DNA from: Streptantibioticus parmotrematis
Lineage (GTDB): Bacteria; Actinomycetota; Actinomycetes; Streptomycetales; Streptomycetaceae
Length of the DNA stretch: 64,000 nucleotides
Assembly: GCF_019890615.1 (NCBI RefSeq)
Contig: NZ_JAINVZ010000014.1
Span: 1 to 64,000 of the forward strand
Direction: 5' to 3'
Translations under genes and position numbers: made by a program
The notes under the pieces: generated by a model
What the model was told of the DNA's origin: nothing
Database searches by the model: none
The model's input: the letters and a program-made list of their open reading frames with translations, nothing else
Shown: positions 36,901 through 47,001 of the stretch, one piece after another
Layout of the letters: each line of letters starts with the position of its first letter
How positions within the stretch are numbered: position 1 is the first letter of the stretch

Positions 36901-37327
36901 GGTGATGCCCGCCCTATGATCGTTTCCCTACCCCGGCACCGAGCTAGACATCGTGCGGGGTCGCGTCAGTTCCCGCCCCGGCTGACCGATTGGGACGAGA
37001 CCCGCCCGGAAGTCTCTCGTACCCGGGCGGACGCCGGGGCGGGCCGCTCCGCCGTGGTCGCCGCCGCCCGCTCCGACGAGGGGCGCGGGGGTCGGCCCCG
37101 CTCCCCCGCCGGTTCGAGGGTCGCCGCGCACTCCACGAGGTGCGTTGTCGTTGTCAGAACCCGCTTTCCGGCTCTGCGGGGAGCTTTTCCCGTCGCCGGA
37201 GCGGCAAACGGGCATCAGGGCATCAGGGCATCAGGGCATCAGGGGAGCGTCGACCGCTCGCCGGGCACGCACCTCGGCGGGCACCACCCGGGGTACGTGA
37301 CCCCGAAGCACGTGACGGCACGGCCGT
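36901..37327. other. Gene-free 430-bp interval
   Basis: It holds the promoter of the L,D-transpeptidase gene and the 3' flank of the AraC gene. The only structure seen is four tandem 8-bp GCATCAGG units (37212-37243). Confidence 0.55.
37212..37243. repeat. Four tandem 8-bp repeats GCATCAGG
   Basis: Four exact copies in a row, 85 bp downstream of the AraC gene stop. They look like a slippage-prone microsatellite; no gene or obvious operator overlaps them. Confidence 0.8.
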
Positions 37328-38122
37328 TCAACCCGCGGGTCGCCTGCCGTGCCCGCGCGCCTCGGCCCGGTACTCGCCGGGCGTCCGGCCCATGGTGCGG
37401 GCGAACGTGTCGATGAAGGCGCTGGTGGTGACCCAGCCGCAGCGCTGCGCCGCCTCCGTGACGGTCGCGCCCTCGGCCAGCAGGACCATCGCGTGGAACA
37501 CCCTCGTGTTGGTCCGCCACTGGGGGTAGGTCATGCCGAACTCGGCCCGGAACAGCCGCGCCAGCGTGCGTTCCCCCACTCCCACGCGGCGCGCCAGCCA
37601 TGTCACGGTCCGTGGTCGGCTCAGGTCGTCGGTCACCACCTGACACGCCTGGGCGAGCCGGGGATCGTGGGGCGCCGGCAGGGTCAGGGGCTGGGCGTGG
37701 GCGCGGCGCAGCCGGTCGTTCAGAACGGCATGGATGCGCCGCGCCTCGGACGCGGGCAGCGCGGGATCGCTGCCCGCGATGAGGAGTTCGCGCAGCAACG
37801 TGTCGACGGCGACGACGGTGGGCGAGTCGACCGGCAGCGGGGCGCCGTCGGCCGGGAAGCCCAGGGTGTGGACGGAGGAGAGCCCGTACACGCGGTGCTC
37901 GTGCCAGGTGTTCGCGGGAATCCAGATGGCGCGGGCGCTGGAGGCGACCCAGGATCCCTGCCCGGTCCTGACCGCGATGACCCCGGTGCTGACGTAGACG
38001 AGCTGGTGGTACTCGTGACGGTGGCCGGAGATCACCGCGCCGGCCTCGTGGGCGTGGCTGCTGGCGATCGCGCGGAACGGGTGGCTGTTCTCCGACACGA
38101 GCGGATGGCTGTTCTCCGACAC
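37328..38122 (-). CDS. AraC-family transcriptional regulator
   Basis: 264 residues from GTG 38122. An N-terminal cupin (AGAVISGHRHEYHQLVYVSTGVIAV...WIPANTWHEHRV) and a C-terminal double HTH (VTWLARRVGVGERTLARLF, VTEAAQRCGWVTTSAFIDTFARTMGRTPGEYR). The first 16 codons are a 24-bp duplication, so two GTG starts (38122 and 38098) share the context GTGTCGGAGAACAGCCA. It diverges from the MFS gene at 38178, its likely target. Confidence 0.9.
   Translation of the reverse strand: MSENSHPLVSENSHPFRAIASSHAHEAGAVISGHRHEYHQLVYVSTGVIAVRTGQGSWVASSARAIWIPANTWHEHRVYGLSSVHTLGFPADGAPLPVDSPTVVAVDTLLRELLIAGSDPALPASEARRIHAVLNDRLRRAHAQPLTLPAPHDPRLAQACQVVTDDLSRPRTVTWLARRVGVGERTLARLFRAEFGMTYPQWRTNTRVFHAMVLLAEGATVTEAAQRCGWVTTSAFIDTFARTMGRTPGEYRAEARGHGRRPAG
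38075..38122 (-). repeat. 24-bp tandem duplication containing the AraC start codon
   Basis: GTGTCGGAGAACAGCCATCC (38122-38103) and GTGTCGGAGAACAGCCACCC (38098-38079) are in-frame repeats that encode SENSHPL and SENSHPF and give two alternative starts. Confidence 0.9.
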
Positions 38123-38177
38123 AATAAGGCAGATTATCGGAAGCGCGAGCGTGTCGACGCGTGACAGCGTGCTTCTC

Positions 38178-39461
38178 ATGAACGCAGCACGAAAACGCCC
38201 GGCGGCCCTGCGGCGGATCGCCCTCGACACCCGACCGCTGCGGATACCGGCCTACCGGCGCCTTCTGGCCGGGCAGGGAAGCTCGTACATCGGAACGATG
38301 CTGACCGGCGTCGCCGTCCCGGTCCAGATGTACTCGCTGTCCCATTCGTCGCTGTACGTGGGCCTGACGGGGATGGCCGGTTTCCTGCCGATCATCGCCT
38401 TCGGCCTGTACGGCGGGGCTGTCGCCGACCGGGTGGACCGGCGACTGCTCTACCTGTGGTCGTCGCTGGTGACCTGGGTGACGACGCTGGCCCTGCTCGG
38501 CCAGACGCTCCTGGACGTCCGATCCGAAGGGCTCATCCTCGCCCTGGTGGCCGTCCAGGCGGCGTCGTTCGCGGTGGCCTCCTCGGCGCGCGGCGCCATC
38601 ATCCCCGGCATCGTCCCGGCGGAACTGGTCGCCGCCGCCAACACGCTCAACTTCACGGCGGGCAACCTGGGCGAAGTGCTCGGGCCGCTGATCGCCGGCG
38701 CCCTCGTCGGCCTGCCGCACGGCTTCGCGTACGCCTACGGGGCCGACGCCCTGCTGTTCACCTTGTCGCTCTACTCGACCTTCCGACTGCCCTCCCTCAC
38801 GGCCGCCGGGCAGGACGCCTCCTGGCGGGGCGGGATGCGCTCGGTGCTCGACGGTCTGCGCTTCATCAGGACCAGCCCGGTGGTGATGATGTCCTTCGCG
38901 GTGGACATCGCCGCCATGGTGCTGGCGATGCCGCGCGCCCTCTTCCCCCAGGCGGTCGCGCTGCGTTTCCACGGCGGGATCGGCCTGCTGTACTCGTCCA
39001 TCGCCATCGGCTCGGTGGTGGCCGGGCTGTTCAGCGGATGGATCGGCAGGGTGCGGCGTCAGGGTGTCGCGCTCACCTGCGCGGTGGCCTGCTGGGCTGC
39101 CGCCATCGCCCTGGCGGGGCTGACCCGCGATCTGGCGACGGCCGTGGCGCTGCTGGCGCTGGCGGGTGCGGCGGATCTGGTCAGCGCGGTCTATCGGCAG
39201 ACGATCCTCCAGACCTACGCCCCCGACGAGATGCGCGGACGTATGCAAGGTGTGTTCACCGTGGTCGTGGCGGGTGGCCCGCGGCTCGGCGACCTGCGCG
39301 CCGGGGCGATGGCCGCCACCACGGGCCTCGGCCTGGCCTGGACGGGCAGCGCGACGCTGTGTCTCGTCCTCGTCCTGGTGACCGCTTCGTGCGTACGGCC
39401 CTTCTGGCACTACACCGTGCGGGAGCAGGACCACGAGGAGAAGGTGCCGGCGGCGGTGTGA
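38178..39461 (+). CDS. MFS transporter (EntS/MFS_3-like exporter)
   Basis: 427 residues with about 12 membrane helices. The loop LYGGAVADRVDRRLLYL after helix 2 is the MFS signature, and RGAIIPGIVPAELVAAANTLNFTAGNLGEVLGPLIAGALV is typical of MFS_3 exporters related to the enterobactin exporter EntS. A conserved PDEMRGRMQGVFTVV precedes the last helices. It is controlled, most likely, by the divergent AraC protein 55 bp away. A terminator lies 45 bp beyond the stop. Confidence 0.87.
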   Translation: MNAARKRPAALRRIALDTRPLRIPAYRRLLAGQGSSYIGTMLTGVAVPVQMYSLSHSSLYVGLTGMAGFLPIIAFGLYGGAVADRVDRRLLYLWSSLVTWVTTLALLGQTLLDVRSEGLILALVAVQAASFAVASSARGAIIPGIVPAELVAAANTLNFTAGNLGEVLGPLIAGALVGLPHGFAYAYGADALLFTLSLYSTFRLPSLTAAGQDASWRGGMRSVLDGLRFIRTSPVVMMSFAVDIAAMVLAMPRALFPQAVALRFHGGIGLLYSSIAIGSVVAGLFSGWIGRVRRQGVALTCAVACWAAAIALAGLTRDLATAVALLALAGAADLVSAVYRQTILQTYAPDEMRGRMQGVFTVVVAGGPRLGDLRAGAMAATTGLGLAWTGSATLCLVLVLVTASCVRPFWHYTVREQDHEEKVPAAV

Positions 39462-39893
39462 CCGGTGGCGAGAGACGCCGGGGCTTCGTGGCCCACCGGT
39501 CACGGGTGTGGGGTCCCGCCCTGGCAGGACCCCACACCCTCGGTCACGCGTCGGCAGCGGTAACGGCCGCGCCTCCGCCGTCGCGACGCCGGAGACATGC
39601 CCGACTCCTGCCGTGTGACCAGTGATTTCCCCGAGTTCACATGGTTGGCCAGGTGGTCACCTCGCTTTCCTCCCGAAGGGATGAGCATCTGCTGCCCATG
39701 GCGGCGGGGGGCATGTTCGGCCATCCGGCTGACACTGATGACGAAGCGGACATGAACTCACCCCGCCGTCGGGCGACATGCGCAACTCAGAGGTTTAAGG
39801 GGCGCGTTGAGGGGACGACGCAGAACGTGACACCTCGTTGGTTTTCCGGGCCCGTCCCAGGGGAGACGACGAAGCGAAAGGAAGTGATTCTCC
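39462..39893. other. Gene-free interval with terminator
   Basis: Beyond the terminator at 39506-39537 I see no gene; apparent frames here lack start sites and actinomycete third-position bias. It must hold the promoter of the small membrane protein gene. Confidence 0.5.
39506..39537 (+). terminator. Terminator after the MFS gene
   Basis: 11-bp perfect arms GTGTGGGGTCC and GGACCCCACAC with a 10-nt loop. Confidence 0.75.
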
Positions 39894-40109
39894 GTGGACA
39901 AGAGGATTCGCACGCTTTTCTTCTTGTGGTCGTTCTCCGGAATCCTGGCGGGTGCCGTTCTGGGTGCGGCGTCAGAAGGCGTGTTCGGTGCGCTGGTCGG
40001 TGCGGTGCTCGGCTTCGCAGCCGCTTCCGCCGTCGTCTTGTACTGGGGAGAACACGGCGGTGCCCGTCACCGCCGACGCACCCCTGCACACCGACCGCAC
40101 TTGAACTGA
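39894..40109 (+). CDS. Small two-helix membrane protein
   Basis: 71 residues from GTG 39894 with AAAGGAAG 9 nt upstream. Two hydrophobic stretches, FFLWSFSGILAGAVLGAA and GALVGAVLGFAAASAVVLYW, with repeated GxxxG/GAVLG motifs as in helix-packing or glycine-zipper proteins. The C terminus is basic (HRRRTPAHRPH). No family is assigned. A terminator-like hairpin follows at 40148. It marks the left edge of the decayed island. Confidence 0.7.
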   Translation: MDKRIRTLFFLWSFSGILAGAVLGAASEGVFGALVGAVLGFAAASAVVLYWGEHGGARHRRRTPAHRPHLN

Positions 40110-40147
40110 GCCGTACCGGCCCAGGCCGATCACGGGCATTCCCTGGG

Positions 40148-40194
40148 CCTTCCATGACTGCGCTGCCGGTGGCTGGCAGCGCGGTCATGGAAGG
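40148..40194 (+). terminator. Hairpin after the small membrane-protein gene
   Basis: 20-bp arms CCTTCCATGACTGCGCTGCC and GGCAGCGCGGTCATGGAAGG with one mismatch and a 7-nt loop. The strongest hairpin before the island. Confidence 0.75.
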
Positions 40195-40286
40195 TGAGAT
40201 GCCGCGGACCACGGTGGCCTGATTGGGCCCCGTCTTTCTGATGTCGCCGCGTGGCGAAACGTTGACGTGGGATCAGGCTGTCCGTT

Positions 40287-40923
40287 ACGCGGGATCAGGC
40301 TGTTCGTGCACGGCTTGAGCGTCCCCGCTGCGGTGAACGCGTTGGATATCGACGCGATGAGCGAGTCGAGGCGACGGGCGCGGCAGTGCCGATCGGCGGC
40401 CACAGCGCGGCGCAGTGCTCGTCCGTCTCCCTTTCGATGCGCTCGCGTGCAGCGCTCCCCGCGTCGGTGATCACAGCGTCGGAGTCGAGCCAACCGCGCC
40501 CGACGAGGGGGCCGTCGCCGCGTTCCACTCCTCCCACTCCTCGTCGTCCCACTGCTGGGTCGCTCGCGCGAGCGCTGTCGGGAGACGGCCGGTCGCAGTG
40601 TGCGGGACGAGGCAGTCGTACGGCCCGAGGCCGTTGTCAGCGAGTACGACGAGATGGGCATCGCCGCGCCACTCGCGTGCCACCGTGATCCGCTGCCACA
40701 GAGCGACAAGACGATCGGACGGAAGCGCGACCGAGGCGTTAGCGGCGGCGAGCACCTTGTCGGCGTAGTCGGCACCGGCGACGACCGGGTCGATCAGCGA
40801 GCGCGCCTCGGCGAGGTGGTCGTCCGTGAGATGTACGTTGACGCGCCGCATCGCCCGGCCGGCGGCCAAGAAGCGGGCGACCCGCCATCGTTCGGGCGGG
40901 GCGGCGTCCCACACGCCCGCCAT
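40287..40923 (-). pseudogene. SCO6745-family gene, 5'-truncated with frameshifts
   Basis: Three consecutive pieces in different minus-strand frames reconstruct the C-terminal two thirds of an SCO6745-type protein. First WDAAPPERWRVARFLAAG...ADYADKVLAAAN...LVPHTATGRLPTALARATQQWDDEEW (40923 to about 40507), then GWLDSDAVITDAGSAARERI...HCAALWPP (to about 40390), then RLDSLIASISNAFTAAGTL (to 40287). The N terminus is missing; the open start merges with a DUF262 fragment. Two frameshifts make it non-functional. Confidence 0.7.
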
Positions 40924-40928
40924 GCTTC

Positions 40929-41138
40929 CGTTCCGATCCGCCGCACCCCCACCTCGGCATCGGTCTCCCAGAACATCAGGGTGCCGATCGGGTAGCCCCG
41001 ATACATCGAGTCGAAGAGGTCGCGCGTCTTCGCCGCAGACCAGACGAACGGGCATTGAATATCGGGGAGTCCGATACGGCCGCCCTCGATGTCCTCGATC
41101 AGGTGCCGGAGCGTGTAATTCGCGTCGCGATACAGAGT
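40929..41138 (-). pseudogene. DUF262 (GmrSD-type) N-terminal fragment
   Basis: About 70 codons encoding YTLRHLIEDIEGG, RIGLPDIQCPFVW, AAKTRDLFDSMYRGYPIGTLMFW, the start of a DUF262 domain. These domains belong to GmrSD-type enzymes that cut modified DNA. The usual Q-R after IP/LP-D is Q-C, the upstream codons lack a proper start, and the sequence breaks off directly against the SCO6745-like fragment. It is a relic of a lost restriction-type gene. Confidence 0.75.
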
Positions 41139-41978
41139 GGGGAGGCACAGCCCAGAATTCCTGACGTCCGAAGGTGACTGGCCAACGGAACCAGTCAGAG
41201 CATGGAATGGCACCAGGTTTCTGCCACGCGGACACGCGCGCCGCATCGAAGGTCCCAAATTCTACTTAGCCGCCAGGGGGTACACGGCAGCGGGACCCCA
41301 ACTAGGTTGACTTTCAGGTGTCTAGGGCACACACCCGTGCGAACTGGAGCGCGCCTAACGGTGATGGGTCCGGAAGTTCAGAGTGATCCACAACCCTCCG
41401 TACATGGCGCATGTCAGGGTCTGACAGGGCACCCGTTCGTGCGGCAGACCCACCAACGCCGCTGCGCTGAGCAGATGAGGGAGCGAAACGAAGTCTCCAC
41501 ACGTTGTACCCGTCCCAGCCTCGAAAGCGCGTCGGGCAGGTTCGTCGGAAACGGTAGAAGGGCAGGTCAGCTACCCTTCACTACTGACTCTAGAACAGCA
41601 ACACACTCAACACACGGTGCCATCGGGAACGGTCCGCAAAACCCCATTTTAGGTGGTAATTAAGGACACATCCACCTGCCCGAAACCCCTTTGAGCGTCA
41701 AGCAGTTCCGCCTGGCCTAGCGCCTCAGGACCGGCTGACAGACCCCACCGTCGATCTCGACAGTCACAAAGGGCTGACCGTTGCACCGGACAGCCGCTTG
41801 AGCACTGCACGTAGTTGGGCGGACTCTTGATAGCTGCTTTCCCAGGCGGGTACGGCACCCTCACCCTCTGTACGCCCCCACCGCCAGACCAAACAGGGCA
41901 CATTCATCAGATTTGCGATCACCCCCATACGCATTCGCACCGGCAAGCCCAGCCGCCGGAAGTGCAGCCTCTCCCACT
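41139..41978. other. Gene-poor decayed stretch of the island
   Basis: About 840 bp with lower GC than the flanks and no coding sequence I can support on either strand. Short frames (for example 41202-41663 plus, 41649-41903 minus) have no family resemblance and weak codon bias. Confidence 0.6.
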
Positions 41979-42064
41979 GGCGCTCCGACACAGTTGATCC
42001 AGCTGCCGAGTCGTTCCTGGGTCAGCCCGGCCGGCCTGAGGGTGCGGCCGAAAACGTCTGGCGG
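41979..42064 (-). pseudogene. Possible helix-turn-helix gene relic
   Basis: Read on the minus strand the segment gives FGRTLRPAGLTQERLGSWIN, similar to the start of an XRE HTH (LRRAAGLTQEQLAEWI). No start, no continuing domain, and the frame is interrupted downstream. Kept at low confidence. Confidence 0.25.
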
Positions 42065-42097
42065 CGGACGTGCCTCGCCGCTCGCGATGAGCTGCCC

Positions 42098-45000
42098 CTA
42101 CGGCAGCCAGCGCGCCGCCTGTTCCCGGGTGATCCGGTCCGCGTCGACCCACCAGTGCCGGGCCTCCTTGTCCCACTGGGCCCTGAGCAGGCGCTTGGCC
42201 TCGTTCCTCTGCTCGTACGGGACGTCGAGGTACAGACGGCCGTCCCGTACCAGGCCCGGGTACACCTTATCGTCCTGCGCCTCGGCTCGCTGGGCAGGCA
42301 TCTCGGACCCTGGAGCGGCCTCTCTGGCGGGACGCCACAGTCCTCGTGCCGGGCGTTCCATGCGGGTGCGTTCCATCAGCCGCCGTACACGGTCGCAGGA
42401 GGCAGGGTCGGTGTAACGCATCATCAGGTCCGTCGGCCCGATGTTCGCGAGCAGGTTCTTCGAGCCGTGCCACAGGACCGTACCGTCCAGAATGAGAACC
42501 TTCTCGTGCATACGATCGCGGCACTCGACCCGGCAGCCGACGGCCTCCAGCTGCCCGACCAGCTCCCGGTGCCGCGCCACGCGGGAGGGTTCCTGTTGCT
42601 CCTCCGACGGGCGAGTGAAGACCGTGATCTGGAGCCCCTCAGCCGCCTTCGCACCGAGCATCCGGGCCCACCGGCGGACGGGAGGTGCGTCCATGAACGC
42701 CGAGTACAGCTCGATGCTGCGCTGTGCTCGCTCCACATCCCATGCCACCGCCTCCAAGACCTCGCTGTGCTCGAAGAATGCCGGTCGTGCCAGTTCCTCC
42801 TCCGACAGCCTGGCCAGCTGGTCCGCGTCGCGGATCGGGATCAGCTGGTCGGCGGAGATGGTCTGCGCGTGCGCCTCCAAATGGTCGACCATCGCCAGTG
42901 CCTCGCTGTGCGGGGCCAGATGCTTACGCAGGAAGGCAACGTCTGCCACGACGACCAGGTGATCCTGGGCCCGGCTGAGAGCGACGTTCAGGAGGCGGCA
43001 GGTCTGCGAGGACAATCCCGTTCCGCTGTAGAAGAAGCCGGGATCCTTGCCGGCGCCTGCGACAGTGTCGAGGAGCACGACGGGACGCTGGCTGCCCTGG
43101 AACCGGTGGACGGTGTCGACCAGGCCGTCGTAGTCCTCCCCGAACCGGTGGGCCAGGCTGTTCTTGAGGACTTTGACCTGCTCTCGGTACGGGGAGATGA
43201 CAGCGAGCCGGTCGGTCGCCCGTTCCCCCTCGGGGACCTCCTGCCACTTGCGTCCGGGCAGGACCCCCTCGTACTGGAGTCCTCGGACCAGCTCGTGGAT
43301 GACCGCGGCGTGGACGGCGTTCGTCATGTGAGGCTTGCGGCCGCCACCGGGGATTCGGCGGCCGGACGTGTCGATGAGGATCACCGGGGAGTCGATGAGC
43401 GGGGCGAACGGCAGGCGGCTGGTGTTCCCGCGCCCGGTCCTGAGCGGCGCGTCCGGATACGCCACTTCGTTGACCACCGCGCAGATCGGCTCCCGCATTC
43501 GGTACTGGGTGTCGAGCGCCACCAGGCGAGGATCCTGGCGCACCCGACCGGAAGGATCGACCAGTCCGGCGGAGTGGAATGCGTCCCGCGCGGTCCATTT
43601 GCGGGAGTGGGTGCGCTCCTCCTCGCTCGCCTCCCGGTCACCGTCGCCCTTGGTTACGGCGGGCAACTGTCGGAAGTCACCCGCCACGACCACCCGCTTG
43701 CGGGCGAGACCCGCAGCGAACCAGGCCGACGGCAGGTTGACCATCCCGGCCTCATCAATCACCACGACGTCGACTTCGTCAAGCAGTTTCCTCGACTGGA
43801 CCGCCTTGGCCACGGTCGCTCCGAGCACCCGGCAGTGGGAGCGAACCTCGTCCTGGATCTGCTTGCGTTTCCGTCCGAGTTCGTTAAGTCTCTCCTGAAG
43901 TGAGGCAGCGGACTCGGCGACAATCTGTCTGGGCGGGATCCCTACGACGGCGGCATAGGCTGCGGGGAGGGCTCGACGGGCCTCGGCCGCCTGCTTCTCA
44001 CCCGCCATGCGGCGCCGGGCCGCGCGCGCCACGTCCGCCCTGGCCCGCTTCGCCTCGTCCTCCTCGTGCGCCAAGGCGGACCAGAGGTCACTCAGTTTCG
44101 CCGTTCTGCGCTCCGCGAGGAATCCGGTCGGTGGCCCCACTTTCTCCATCTTCCGCCGCAGCTGCGCGGCCAGGGTGTCCGCGGCCGCGACCATCCTCGC
44201 CGCCGCGGCGTGGTCCTGGTCGGCCTCAGCCATCTCCTCTGTGCCGATGGCCAGGTCCGACTCCAGGCCCCGGATCCTGTCGTGCAGGGCCAGCGCCTCT
44301 CTCGCGCCCTTGAGCTGGTCGGTCGCCGTGCCGATCTTTCGGTCGATGTTCTCCACGAGCAGGGCGGCAATTCGGGCCGGGTCGACCTGGTCTCCGTAGC
44401 GGCTGAGCAGGGATGGCAGGAAGATGGTCCCTGCCCGCTGGACGATCCCCTCGGCGAAACCCTCCTCGTGCTCCAGCAGGGAGCACATCCGCTCAAGAGC
44501 CTGGTCCACCGCGACGTTCGTGGGGGCAAGAAAGAGGATCTTGAGTCCTTGGCGGAAACTGCCCTCGACGATGTGACCGACGACGTCCGTCTTCCCGGTG
44601 CCGGGCGGTCCCCACAGGAACAGCACCTCACTGGCGAGGGCCTGTGCGACGGCGTCGCGCTGACGTGGGTTCAGCTGGAGCCCCGCCCAGTTCGCCACCC
44701 ACTGCCCCGGGTTCTCAGCACGGCCGGTGCGCGGGGTCCCCCGGCCGATCAGCCAGCCCGCGTGGTCCGCGTCAACGGGGCTGTCCTGACCGCCGGCCGT
44801 GTCCAGGCGCTCGGCCAGCGCTGCCCAGTTCGCGGAGTCGTCCTTGCGGATCTGAACGTTCGCGGGCGCCGCCCCGAAATCGGCCTTCGTCACGAGCCTG
44901 ACGGTCCCGTCCGGAGCGCGAGTCGCCTCAGCCGGGTCCCACGCCTTCCGGGAACGTGACGGCCGGGCAAGAACCGAAACACCGTCCAGGCTGTCGTGCC

Positions 45001-45175
45001 AGGTGCGGCACTCGAAGAGATACTCGCGTGTCCCCTCAGATTGCGAGAGAAGCCGCCCCTTAGAAAGAGCGACCTTCATGGCGCCCTCGGCGTCGTTCCG
45101 GAGTTCGGCGAGGATTTCGGCGCGCACCGCCGTCAGAAGCTCCTCGACGGGATAAGGCCGCCCCGCCCCGGTCAT
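42098..45175 (-). CDS. SF1 (DNA2/NAM7-like) helicase-PLD nuclease-DUF5710 fusion, Mokosh type II-like
   Basis: 1025 residues. The UPF1/DNA2-type helicase core has Walker A WGPPGTGKTD at 189-196, an insert rich in coiled coil (about 280-460), Walker B VVVIDEAGMV (DEAG 474-477), motif III GDFRQLPAV, motif IV TQYRM, motif V VDTVHRFQGSQ and motif VI LNVALSRAQDH. Residues about 795-935 form a phospholipase-D-type nuclease with one H-x-K (MHEKVLILD, H890/K892) and GSKNLL, so it must dimerise to be active. Residues about 979-1025 are a DUF5710-like module (LYLDVPYEQRNEAKRLLRAQ). A helicase plus PLD in one chain is the Mokosh type II (MkoC) anti-phage arrangement. ATG 45175 has GGGGGAG 8 nt upstream; a GTG at 45181 is less likely. 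Confidence 0.85.
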   Translation of the reverse strand: MTGAGRPYPVEELLTAVRAEILAELRNDAEGAMKVALSKGRLLSQSEGTREYLFECRTWHDSLDGVSVLARPSRSRKAWDPAEATRAPDGTVRLVTKADFGAAPANVQIRKDDSANWAALAERLDTAGGQDSPVDADHAGWLIGRGTPRTGRAENPGQWVANWAGLQLNPRQRDAVAQALASEVLFLWGPPGTGKTDVVGHIVEGSFRQGLKILFLAPTNVAVDQALERMCSLLEHEEGFAEGIVQRAGTIFLPSLLSRYGDQVDPARIAALLVENIDRKIGTATDQLKGAREALALHDRIRGLESDLAIGTEEMAEADQDHAAAARMVAAADTLAAQLRRKMEKVGPPTGFLAERRTAKLSDLWSALAHEEDEAKRARADVARAARRRMAGEKQAAEARRALPAAYAAVVGIPPRQIVAESAASLQERLNELGRKRKQIQDEVRSHCRVLGATVAKAVQSRKLLDEVDVVVIDEAGMVNLPSAWFAAGLARKRVVVAGDFRQLPAVTKGDGDREASEEERTHSRKWTARDAFHSAGLVDPSGRVRQDPRLVALDTQYRMREPICAVVNEVAYPDAPLRTGRGNTSRLPFAPLIDSPVILIDTSGRRIPGGGRKPHMTNAVHAAVIHELVRGLQYEGVLPGRKWQEVPEGERATDRLAVISPYREQVKVLKNSLAHRFGEDYDGLVDTVHRFQGSQRPVVLLDTVAGAGKDPGFFYSGTGLSSQTCRLLNVALSRAQDHLVVVADVAFLRKHLAPHSEALAMVDHLEAHAQTISADQLIPIRDADQLARLSEEELARPAFFEHSEVLEAVAWDVERAQRSIELYSAFMDAPPVRRWARMLGAKAAEGLQITVFTRPSEEQQEPSRVARHRELVGQLEAVGCRVECRDRMHEKVLILDGTVLWHGSKNLLANIGPTDLMMRYTDPASCDRVRRLMERTRMERPARGLWRPAREAAPGSEMPAQRAEAQDDKVYPGLVRDGRLYLDVPYEQRNEAKRLLRAQWDKEARHWWVDADRITREQAARWLP

Positions 45176-45529
45176 GTACACCGCTCCCCCAACATCGCCC
45201 CACAGGTCCGAAGACTGTACGTGAGTCTGCCGCTGTCGAACGGTGCACTCGACGGCTATGGCCAGTCACTGACCTGTCGCTGGCCGGAATCATTCGTGAT
45301 CAGCCATACCGGTGGCTACTTCAGCAACCCTCGGCACCGTCAACCAACTACAACACCGCTGCCCAACAGCACGGGAACGCCATAGCCGCGTCTGGAATCC
45401 GCGGAAGCGGTGCGGGCCCGGCTCGCCCTCTTGCCGCACTGCAGGAGGCGGGGATCCCGAAGCCACAGGCAGTAGCAGACAGCACAAGCACAAGACTGTG
45501 ATACCGAGGCGTTGCGCCGGCACCGCTCC
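45176..45529. other. Gene-free stretch upstream of the helicase
   Basis: About 350 bp with no supported gene; it must contain the helicase promoter. Composition is less GC-biased than the core on the right. Confidence 0.5.
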
Positions 45530-45613
45530 TCAGATCAGATCGAGTAACGCAACGCACTCCACACAGTGGAGCCGCCCAAGTCCCGAAAGCAGGTCGAACA
45601 AGCTCAGGGGAAC
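45530..45613 (-). pseudogene. Relic of a second TrmA-family 3' end
   Basis: Minus-strand reading VPLSLFDLL...HCVECVALLDLI ends in a stop and matches the C terminus of the intact methyltransferase (VSLRAFDLFPMTHHVECVAVLE). It lies 15 bp beyond that gene's stop codon, in the same orientation, and has no upstream remainder. Interpreted as a displaced original gene end or a decayed paralogue at the island border. Confidence 0.65.
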
Positions 45614-45627
45614 TGCAAAATGGCAGA

Positions 45628-47001
45628 TCAGACGTCCTTGTTCACCGGCTCCAGCACCGCCACGCACTCCACATGATGCGTCATAGGAAACAAGTCGAAC
45701 GCCCTCAACGACACCGGGGCGTAGCCCTCGGACTCGAAGTACTTCAGGTCTCGGGCCAGGGCGGCCGGGTCGCAGGCTACGTACGCGATGCGCCTCGGGG
45801 TCAGGGACGCCAGGTGGCTGACCGTGGCGCGGCCCGCTCCGGAGCGGGGCGGGTCGAGGACGACGAGGTCGGCCTCCGTGATGCCCGTGCGGGGCAGCAC
45901 CTGTTCCACCTTGCCGTGTTCGATCCTCACCCGGTCGAGGTCGGCGAGGTTGTGCCGCGCGTCCTCCGCCGCGCGCTTGCCCGACTCGATGCCGAGGACC
46001 GCCCCGCGCTCCCCCACCCGTTCCGCCAGCGCGCCCGCGAACAGGCCCACACCGCAGTACAGGTCGAGCGCCGTCTCGCCGCGCCGTGGCGCGAGTCCGT
46101 CGAGCACCGCGCGGACCAGCAGGTCCGCCGCCTGCGGATGCACCTGCCAGAAGCCGCCCGCGCCGACCCGCCAGGTGCGGCCTGCCGCCCGTTCCCGTAC
46201 GAAACCGCGCCCGTGCACCCGGTGCACGCCGCCCTGGTCGTCCACCCGCAGGACGGAGACCGGCTTGTCCAGCTCGACCAGCGGCAGCCGACCGTCCGGC
46301 TTGGGCGTGATGACCACCTGGCGGTCGGACGAGCCCGTCGCCGCGATCGCCTCCACCGACTCCATGTCCGGCCAGTGCCGCCGCTCCACGCCCAGCTCCG
46401 CCACCTCCGGCGCGGCGATCAGGCAGCGGTCGATGACCTGCACCTCGTGCGAGCGGTGCTTGCGCAGCCCCGCGAAACCCTCGCCGTCGATCGCATACTG
46501 CACCCGCGTGCGCCACGCGGGGACCTTGCCGCGTTCCACCTTGTCGCCCGGCGCCGGCATCACCGTGCCGTCCCAGCCCGCCTCCTGCGGCGTCAGGCCC
46601 GCCAGGCGCTCCAACTGCTCGGTGATCACGGCGACCTTGAGCCTGCGCTGCGCACCGGGCGCCGCGTGCTGCCAGTCGCAACCGCCGCACGCGCCGGGGC
46701 CCGCGTACGGGCAGGGCGCCTCCACGCGGTCGTTCGACGCCTCGATCACCTCGACCGCGTCGGCCCGCAGGAACCGCGACTCCTCGTCGCCCTCGGTGAC
46801 CTGCGCGATCACCCGCTCACCCGGCAGCGCGTGCCGGACGAACAGCACCCGCCCCTCGTGCCGGGCGATGCAGTGCCCGCCGTGCGCGACCGGGCCGACC
46901 TCGACCTCGTAGCGCTCACCGACCAGCGAGGCGGCCGCCCCCGGGGCGTCCTGGTCCTTCGTACGGCTGGTACGAGGCGTCGTGCGGGTGCGGTGGTTCA
47001 C
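45628..47001 (-). CDS. TrmA/RlmD-family 5-methyluridine RNA methyltransferase
   Basis: 457 residues. N-terminal TRAM domain (about 29-85: GERYEVEVGPVAHGGHCIARHEGRVLFVRHALPGE), [4Fe-4S] cysteines C97, C105, C108 and C193, then a Rossmann methyltransferase: ALDLYCGVGLFAG (SAM motif I), VLDPPRSGAG, and YVACDP with nucleophile C410. E445 in HHVEC is the conserved base. It methylates U at C5 in tRNA or 23S rRNA using SAM. GTG start at 47001. Its 3' end borders the decayed island and is duplicated in part at 45530. Confidence 0.9.
   Translation of the reverse strand: MNHRTRTTPRTSRTKDQDAPGAAASLVGERYEVEVGPVAHGGHCIARHEGRVLFVRHALPGERVIAQVTEGDEESRFLRADAVEVIEASNDRVEAPCPYAGPGACGGCDWQHAAPGAQRRLKVAVITEQLERLAGLTPQEAGWDGTVMPAPGDKVERGKVPAWRTRVQYAIDGEGFAGLRKHRSHEVQVIDRCLIAAPEVAELGVERRHWPDMESVEAIAATGSSDRQVVITPKPDGRLPLVELDKPVSVLRVDDQGGVHRVHGRGFVRERAAGRTWRVGAGGFWQVHPQAADLLVRAVLDGLAPRRGETALDLYCGVGLFAGALAERVGERGAVLGIESGKRAAEDARHNLADLDRVRIEHGKVEQVLPRTGITEADLVVLDPPRSGAGRATVSHLASLTPRRIAYVACDPAALARDLKYFESEGYAPVSLRAFDLFPMTHHVECVAVLEPVNKDV

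What the first reader, a model, noticed from the sequence alone, without database searches (positions are those of the whole stretch)
42098..45175. Single-protein helicase-PLD-DUF5710 fusion: a Mokosh type II-like defence candidate
The 1025-residue protein keeps every SF1 helicase motif (GPPGTGKT, DEAG, TQYRM, VHRFQGSQ, ALSRAQDH) and a C-terminal PLD site (H-x-K, GSKN). A COG1112-type helicase plus a PLD nuclease in one chain defines Mokosh type II (MkoC). Here a DUF5710-like module follows the nuclease, and I know of no role for it in that system. It is intact while its neighbours are decayed, which fits active selection in a defence island.
Basis: partly seen in the sequence, partly recalled or inferred. 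Interest (0 to 1): 0.8.

Follow-up and report, generated by a model that had tools for sequence, protein, structure and literature searches.

The report
Stand-alone helicase–nuclease defence gene candidate
A soil bacterium carries a single mobile gene that joins a DNA/RNA-unwinding motor, a nuclease and a small extra domain, probably to destroy invading virus or plasmid nucleic acid; it resembles a known antiviral protein but appears to belong to a separate, unnamed lineage.

Summary
Window 42101-45175, minus strand, encodes an intact 1025-residue protein: UPF1/IGHMBP2-type SF1 helicase with a long helical insertion, one PLD domain with a complete HxK(x4)D...GSxN site, and a C-terminal DUF5710, conserved in 14 of 14 aligned rows. 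The gene is patchy (13 of 121 Streptomycetaceae genomes), moves alone, is under purifying selection, and 5 of 15 other loci have uninterrupted defence-type genes nearby (DruE, DISARM, type IV restriction, SNF2).

The Mokosh II label is half right. Two end-to-end MkoC matches score 1031-1244 bits; this protein scores 147, its best stretch covering 40% of the model. Helicase trees place it away from MkoC (AU p 0.0005, 0.0001; long branches, two MkoC rows). It works like MkoC; membership is not met.

New: all 9 DUF5710 matches in 61 Streptomycetaceae genomes are this protein's C-terminus, and five deeper relatives carry a homologous but inactivated PLD; four of these end in zinc ribbons instead of DUF5710 (two by profile, two by eye). 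I infer an autonomous helicase-nuclease whose C-terminal module grips the substrate. Defence activity and substrate are untested; structure prediction mostly failed.

The parts
42098..45175 (-). whole gene: helicase-PLD-DUF5710 protein, 1025 aa plus stop
   Evidence: translation, Pfam, 14-row alignment
45176..45307 (-). conserved upstream segment, presumably promoter and ribosome-binding site; edge of the DNA shared with other Streptomyces loci
   Evidence: blastn shared segment ends at 45307 in L003 and L006, 45303 in L004 and 45271 in L005; alignment; function inferred
44696..45175 (-). residues 1-160, N-terminal domain of unknown fold
   Evidence: mean pairwise identity 0.50 in 12 rows; best PDB match E 0.4
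44390..44698 (-). residues 160-262, RecA1 with Walker A GPPGTGKT
   Evidence: AAA_11/AAA_30; identity 0.75
43856..44389 (-). residues 263-440, long helical, probably coiled-coil insertion
   Evidence: helices 266-346, 354-410, 416-460, pLDDT blocks mostly 73-84; fast-evolving, identity 0.36; much shorter in 4 of 5 pseudo-PLD relatives
43526..43855 (-). residues 441-550, RecA1 continued, DEAG
   Evidence: Pfam AAA_11
42866..43525 (-). residues 551-770, RecA2 with QYRM, VHRFQGSQ and LSRAQDH
   Evidence: Pfam AAA_12
42356..42808 (-). residues 790-940, PLD nuclease domain
   Evidence: PLDc_2 in 14 of 14 rows; hhalign 96.8% to MkoC PLD; MitoPLD match E 0.0012
42455..42508 (-). residues 890-907, HxK(x4)D...GSxN active-site segment
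   Evidence: invariant catalytic positions, 14 of 14 rows
42260..42355 (-). residues 941-972, variable linker
   Evidence: identity 0.28
42101..42259 (-). residues 973-1025, DUF5710
   Evidence: 53 bits; the one confident part of the C-terminal model, pLDDT blocks 79-86
42045..42097 (-). downstream edge of the DNA segment shared with L003
   Evidence: blastn

Best explanation
A stand-alone, horizontally moving, single-protein defence enzyme that works like Mokosh type II but belongs to a separate helicase lineage. Shown by sequence: an SF1 UPF1/IGHMBP2-like motor with all motifs, a long helical insertion, one intact PLD site, and a C-terminal DUF5710. Inferred mechanism: the motor loads on exposed single-stranded DNA or RNA of an invader (replication or transfer intermediates) and translocates; the helical insertion holds protomers together; since one chain has only one HKD half-site, two chains pair to make one metal-independent PLD endonuclease site, as in the single-HKD nucleases Nuc and Zucchini/MitoPLD (recalled knowledge); DUF5710 grips the nucleic acid at the place where relatives carry zinc ribbons. 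ATP-driven loading releases the nuclease, which cuts the invader or kills the infected cell.
For: Architecture and invariant catalytic residues. Purifying selection: dN/dS 0.13-0.21 over the whole gene in 7 of 7 pairs computed, PLD 0.04-0.15. Patchy: 13 of 121 Streptomycetaceae genomes, own included, 12 of the 13 without internal stop; 9 of 246 in the class at a looser threshold, deeper relatives included. Mobile: L003 shares only 42045-45307 (90.7%); in L004/L005, at the same site beside trmA, the gene is 93/86% identical while the genes on the trmA side are 74-83%; a same-genus genome with 94-96% identity on the trmA side has no match to 37290-45615. No neighbour gene is shared by more than 3 of 16 loci. 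Defence-type neighbours in 5 of 15 non-window loci: DruE+NsnA+NsnB (L003), DruE (L025), type IV enzyme (L026), DrmA/B/C (L027), SNF2 DrmD-like (L020), against none of these kinds among the 25 shown of 31 models matched by 120 genes of 12 arbitrary loci of the same genomes. C-terminal slot: zinc ribbons in relatives. DUF5710 on plasmid primase/replication proteins.
Against: No phage or plasmid challenge exists. I could assign no defence gene to the window's own flanks, and 10 of 15 non-window loci showed none that I counted. The full-length model failed (pLDDT 41) and the C-terminal model is poor over the PLD, so PLD geometry, dimerisation and the role of the helical insertion are unproven. Nuclease target (DNA or RNA) is unknown. 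In 50,697 phage and 72,556 plasmid records no place covers 80% of the protein. The neighbour control is small, its table was cut at 25 of 31 models and the flank table at 25 of 98.
Confidence: 0.6

Rival explanations
1. It is a divergent Mokosh type II (MkoC) that gained a DUF5710 tail.
For: Same order and one chain; BLAST collinear through the PLD; PLD profiles match at 96.8%; 14 of 14 rows hit the MkoC model and 7 of 14 hit MkoB; of 17 matches to the MkoC model at E<=1e-30 in 61 genomes, only the five from this family reach past profile position 980 of 1136.
Against: 147 bits against 1031-1244 for end-to-end MkoC matches; the best stretch leaves profile positions 1-660 unmatched (a second stretch that passed was not shown); helicase tree and AU p 0.000475 and 0.000102; nearest helicases in the trees have a pseudo-PLD, not an MkoC-like one.
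Confidence: 0.15
2. It is a nucleic-acid repair or RNA-surveillance helicase-nuclease (IGHMBP2/DNA2-like) that moves between genomes for other reasons.
For: Best solved relatives are SMUBP-2, DNA2 and UPF1; DUF5710 occurs on replication proteins.
Against: Absent from 108 of 121 Streptomycetaceae genomes at E<=1e-60, broken or truncated in several, defence-type neighbours; a core repair gene would be stable in place.
Confidence: 0.15
3. It is an anti-plasmid or anti-conjugation factor rather than an anti-phage one: DUF5710, otherwise known on plasmid primase (TraC-like) and Rep_3 proteins, aims it at plasmid lagging-strand or transfer intermediates.
For: DUF5710 context: 14 Rep proteins with Rep_3 and DUF5710 on Acinetobacter pittii plasmids (PMC11233732 passages); TraC/primase and zincin-like proteins on plasmids.
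Against: No functional data; DUF5710 function itself unknown; the neighbours found are anti-phage or restriction systems.
Confidence: 0.1

Closest known systems
Mokosh type II (MkoC)
   Same: single chain, COG1112/UPF1-like helicase N-terminal to one PLD domain with HxK(x4)D and GSxN; detectable PLD homology
   Different: only 147 bits, best stretch 661-1118 of 1136; separate helicase branch; no DUF5710 match at E<=0.01 in the two MkoC proteins examined
Mokosh type I (MkoA + MkoB)
   Same: helicase core scores 207 bits on an MkoA model; 7 of 14 rows hit MkoB
   Different: one gene not two, no kinase domain; two kinase-free relatives with a pseudo-PLD (L052, L053) score 189-191 bits on the same MkoA model, so that score does not single out Mokosh; hhalign to five putative MkoB proteins 0.2%
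Pseudo-PLD relatives (unnamed; L094, L096, L097, Aulosira L052, Cytobacillus L053)
   Same: same helicase clade and a homologous C-terminal PLD-fold domain (hhalign 98.2%)
   Different: HxK lost; zinc ribbons instead of DUF5710 in four (L094 and L097 by profile, L096 and L052 by eye), nothing after the domain in L053; short helical insertion in 4 of 5
CoCoNuT CnuH helicase with PLD effector (type III-C)
   Same: UPF1-like helicase with a large helical insertion, working with a PLD effector (PMC11090510 passages)
   Different: there the effector is a wHTH protein with two PLD domains and the system includes McrB/C-like genes; no neighbour is shared by more than 3 of 16 loci here
Hachiman HamAB
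   Same: sensor helicase restraining a nuclease effector (abstract of PMC12278908 in a listing), the regulatory logic proposed here
   Different: two genes; other helicase and nuclease families (recalled)

Membership tests
Mokosh type II (MkoC) | helicase N-terminal and PLD C-terminal in one gene | tested here: met
   definition from PMC11672841 passage
Mokosh type II (MkoC) | full-length match to the MkoC profile at a level comparable with end-to-end MkoC proteins | tested here: not met
   147 bits, best stretch 661-1118 of 1136, against 1244 (5-1135) and 1031 (1-1127); PADLOC's own acceptance threshold was not available
Mokosh type II (MkoC) | helicase groups with MkoC in a tree | tested here: not met
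   AU p 0.000475, 0.000102; only two MkoC rows and long-branch warnings
Mokosh type II (MkoC) | intact PLD catalytic motif | tested here: met
   14 of 14 rows
Mokosh type II (MkoC) | anti-phage activity | not testable with these tools
   needs phage challenge
Mokosh type I (MkoA/MkoB) | two genes, MkoA with kinase domain plus a separate PLD gene | tested here: not met
   single chain, no kinase family among the Pfam hits, no neighbour shared by more than 3 of 16 loci
SF1 UPF1/IGHMBP2-like helicases | AAA_11 + AAA_12 with SF1 motifs | tested here: met
NCBIfam TIGR00376 IGHMBP2 family helicase | score over curated cut-off 348.9 | tested here: not met
   124.1 bits
PLD nuclease superfamily | HKD motif and PLD profile | tested here: met
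   profile match in 14 of 14 rows at E<=0.01; P0001 itself 26.1 bits, 0.9 below the Pfam cut-off
PLD nuclease superfamily | PLD fold in a predicted structure | tested here: inconclusive
   C-terminal model pLDDT 49.5 with the PLD region mostly under 60; PLD3, Tdp1 and PLD chains appear at Z 3.6-4.4 among unrelated folds
DUF5710 (PF18974) | score over gathering cut-off | tested here: met
   53 bits against 26.5
CoCoNuT type III | association with CnuB/CnuC McrBC-like genes | tested here: inconclusive
   no neighbour gene is shared by more than 3 of 16 loci, but neighbours were not searched with McrB/C profiles one by one

The most novel reading that the evidence does not exclude
An unnamed defence family in which the same UPF1-like motor carries a PLD-fold domain that exists in two states, catalytic and dead, with an exchangeable C-terminal nucleic-acid grip (DUF5710 in the catalytic branch, zinc ribbons in much of the dead branch). 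The helicase-PLD design would then have arisen, or been kept, independently of MkoC, and DUF5710, taken from plasmid replication proteins, would be the targeting module that directs the nuclease to replication or transfer intermediates. It sometimes travels beside YprA-type DruE helicases, with which it may act as a second layer.
Probability: 0.3. Interest if true: 0.7.

Novelty: new variant of a known kind. Interest (0 to 1): 0.5.

Why it matters
If right, actinomycetes have a one-gene helicase-nuclease defence that the PADLOC models used here catch only as a weak MkoA/MkoC match and would misfile or drop. Its pseudo-PLD relatives offer a natural catalytic-dead comparison, and DUF5710, a domain of unknown function, gets a testable role as the substrate-binding part of a nuclease.

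Tried and rejected
Structure. Full-length AlphaFold2 with three close rows failed (mean pLDDT 41; only the helical insertion near 80). The C-terminal 256 residues gave pLDDT 49.5, confident only over DUF5710. Foldseek gave no match at E<=0.001, best rows MITD1 at E 0.068-0.12; VIA-align gave middling Z (best 5.5), with PLD3, Tdp1, PPK1 and PLD chains among unrelated folds, rows spanning residues 20-153 of the model; I draw no fold claim from these. DUF5710 profile against the PDB: best rows are WD-repeat proteins at E 0.05 and weaker, taken as chance. N-terminal profile: best E 0.4. A match of residues 773-818 to type III antifreeze proteins (E 3.4e-5, made of two stretches of i-Evalue 3 and 0.23) is probably chance.

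Viral collection.

Mokosh I. The high MkoA score (207 bits) was first taken as a sign of Mokosh I; set aside because L052 and L053, kinase-free and with a pseudo-PLD, score 189-191 bits on it. hhalign of the PLD against five putative MkoB proteins gave nothing, against 7 of 14 hmmscan hits to MkoB: unresolved.

Neighbours. 97 flank genes were scanned: picked by hand from 106 called within 5.5 kb plus some genes over 1000 aa that the list had left out. Of 20 of these scanned singly, chosen as likely candidates, 10 had matches at the limits used; I did not count the weak matches in L022 (LmuB/mad3, E 3e-17) and L030 (PDC-S41, E 2e-18). The other 77 were seen only in the cut summary table. Of 16 control loci fetched, 12 (one per genome) were scanned. 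My gene calling is a simple GC-frame caller and missed genes, for example in L021.

Tree rows dropped: MkoA fragment L055 (no Walker A) and near-duplicate MkoC L073; in the second tree five long or redundant rows and five family rows; the third used 23 chosen rows. Of 12 further loci with MkoC-model matches fetched (11 Streptomycetaceae, 1 from the class), a first regex search found none usable and a core profile found 6.

Literature: searches. None of the titles and abstract starts listed described a helicase-PLD-DUF5710 protein; most subscription papers are not held, and the original Mokosh paper (recalled: Millman et al. 2022) did not appear in my listings, so absence from print is not claimed. 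PMC11233732, PMC10952713, PMC11090510, PMC11672841, PMC12458937, PMC12278908: passages only.
Full report
What is there. The gene lies on the minus strand at 42098-45175 and encodes 1025 residues without interruption. Pfam finds the two SF1 helicase halves, a PLD-like domain slightly under its cut-off and DUF5710 well over it. In an alignment of 14 rows (this protein and 13 relatives, 54-92% identical to it) the PLD residues H890, K892, D897, G904, S905 and N907 are invariant, and DUF5710 is matched in 14 of 14. Solved relatives of the motor are SMUBP-2/IGHMBP2, DNA2 and UPF1. The best PLD relative of solved structure, apart from a probable chance match to antifreeze proteins, is mitochondrial cardiolipin hydrolase (MitoPLD/Zucchini), E 0.0012. 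Between the Walker A region and DEAG lies a fast-evolving helical insertion (residues 263-440), reminiscent of the helical insertion described for CnuH helicases (PMC11090510 passage).

Selection and mobility. Whole-gene dN/dS is 0.13-0.21 in seven pairs; over the PLD 0.04-0.15, over DUF5710 0.09-0.53 with few sites. The gene occurs in 13 of 121 sampled Streptomycetaceae genomes, own included, 6 of 17 genera, in 2 of 149 genomes of a phylum sample, own included, and 9 of 246 genomes of a class sample match at a looser threshold. Streptomyces sp. Ncost-T10-10d (L003) shares only window 42045-45307, at 90.7%, out of window 30001-60000; in S. iconiensis (L004) and S. scopuliridis (L005) the gene lies at the same place beside a TrmA-like methyltransferase gene (name from my reading), with the gene 93% and 86% identical and the genes on the trmA side 74-83%; the other side is not shared. 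A same-genus genome (G001) matches at 94-96% on the trmA side and 83-94% on the far side but has no match over 80 bases to window 37290-45615. Broken copies occur: an IS with a 5-bp target duplication (read by eye) ends the L004 reading frame after residue 985, at the start of DUF5710; only the first 103 codons were found in S. hygroscopicus (L006); the G007 copy is interrupted and has an internal stop; G272 has five stops.

Neighbourhood. Across 16 loci no neighbour gene is shared by more than 3 loci; the largest sets are those of the trmA site (window, L004, L005) and one set in L023, L024 and L030. Uninterrupted defence-type genes lie near 5 of the 15 non-window loci. L003: a 2274-aa DruE-type helicase, divergent, about 200 bp away, and NsnA/NsnB. 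L025: a 2108-aa DruE-type protein, divergent. L026: a type IV methyl-directed restriction enzyme (1311 bits), convergent. L027: DrmA, DrmB and DrmC on the same strand, with one unassigned 388-aa ORF between them and the gene. L020: an SNF2 helicase scoring 268 bits on DrmD and also on BREX and Dpd models. L005 and L004 keep fragments similar to the L003 druE beside the gene. As a control, 120 genes from 12 arbitrary loci of the same genomes matched 31 models at 1e-15; the 25 shown are kinase-type cross-matches, mad3, a TAP-like protein and MkoA, against 98 models for 97 flank genes, 25 shown. The flank genes were hand-picked and some large genes added, so this is suggestive, not a formal enrichment. 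I could assign no defence gene to the window's own flanks, and the own genome has no match to the DruE model.

Is it Mokosh? Mokosh II is described as one gene with the RNA helicase N-terminal and the PLD nuclease C-terminal (PMC11672841 passage), which this matches. As a yardstick I took two plasmid proteins that the MkoC model covers end to end: 1244 bits (Agrobacterium, L049) and 1031 bits (Nitratidesulfovibrio, L051). P0001 reaches 147 bits, best stretch at positions 661-1118 of 1136. The similarity does run on through the PLD, and of 17 matches to the model at E<=1e-30 in 61 genomes only the five from this family reach past profile position 980, so the resemblance is more than a generic helicase. 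But in three helicase-core trees the family sits apart from MkoC; holding both together is rejected at p 0.000475 and 0.000102, and holding family, pseudo-PLD relatives and MkoC together at p 0.011. The trees carry long-branch and composition warnings and only two MkoC rows. I therefore file it as working like MkoC, membership not met.

The wider lineage. The class search found two further full-length DUF5710 members (L091, L092) and more distant proteins. Three of these, read to their end (L094, L096, L097; L095 is cut by the stretch), have the same helicase, then a PLD-fold domain whose HxK is replaced, then zinc-binding ends: topoisomerase zinc ribbon at 30.4 bits in L094 (under the cut-off of 32) and 32.3 in L097 (over it), and CxxC pairs seen by eye in L096. 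Aulosira L052, from a plasmid record, has a similar end by eye; Cytobacillus L053, likewise from a plasmid record, stops after the degenerate domain. The degenerate domains together match the active PLD profile at 98.2% probability. All 9 DUF5710 matches in 61 Streptomycetaceae genomes are this protein's C-terminus (places compared). Elsewhere DUF5710 sits on plasmid primase/TraC and Rep_3 proteins. I read DUF5710 as the nucleic-acid grip of the catalytic branch; this is inference from position and company. Whether the active PLD is ancestral and was lost in the relatives, or the reverse, is not resolved.

Mechanism and limits. Steps shown: domains, catalytic residues, selection, mobility, patchiness, defence-type genes near a third of the other loci. 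Steps inferred: loading on single strands, dimer-made PLD site, ATP-gated cutting, DUF5710 as grip, anti-phage or anti-plasmid role. Structure prediction did not help beyond a confident small DUF5710 domain. The bench tests named under next steps would decide.

Noticed in passing
L025:1988-8314 (minus strand): A 2108-aa DruE-type helicase that appears by eye to begin with a Ser/Thr protein kinase domain; it shares 31-36% identity with the L003 DruE in two helicase segments.
   Followed up: partly
L094, L096, L097, L052, L053 (C-terminal ends): Helicases of the same clade with an inactivated PLD-fold domain, four of five with C-terminal zinc ribbons; possibly a separate, non-cutting branch of the family.
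   Followed up: partly
window 37290-45615, beside the TrmA-like gene 45628-47001: Variable region: not matched in a same-genus genome; in the window and two other Streptomyces loci (L004, L005) the helicase-PLD gene sits at the same place, so this may be an insertion hotspot.
   Followed up: partly
L005:13298-14893 and L021:11716-13347: Two loci that do not share the trmA site have a related gene about 200 bp from the helicase-PLD gene; not identified.
   Followed up: no
window 40185-41258: Overlapping reading frames on the minus strand that look by eye like a decayed DUF262-type gene; not checked with a profile.
   Followed up: no
L055:1-6410 (Pseudomonas aeruginosa plasmid): A Mokosh I-like locus whose helicase region is annotated in pieces, so possibly broken.
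   Followed up: no
L049:4021-13329 (Agrobacterium pAt): A gene that the MkoC model covers end to end is followed by two hypothetical genes and a His-Xaa-Ser radical-SAM cluster.
   Followed up: no
window 42722-42859 (residues 773-818 of the protein): Weak profile match to type III antifreeze proteins, just before the PLD; probably chance.
   Followed up: no
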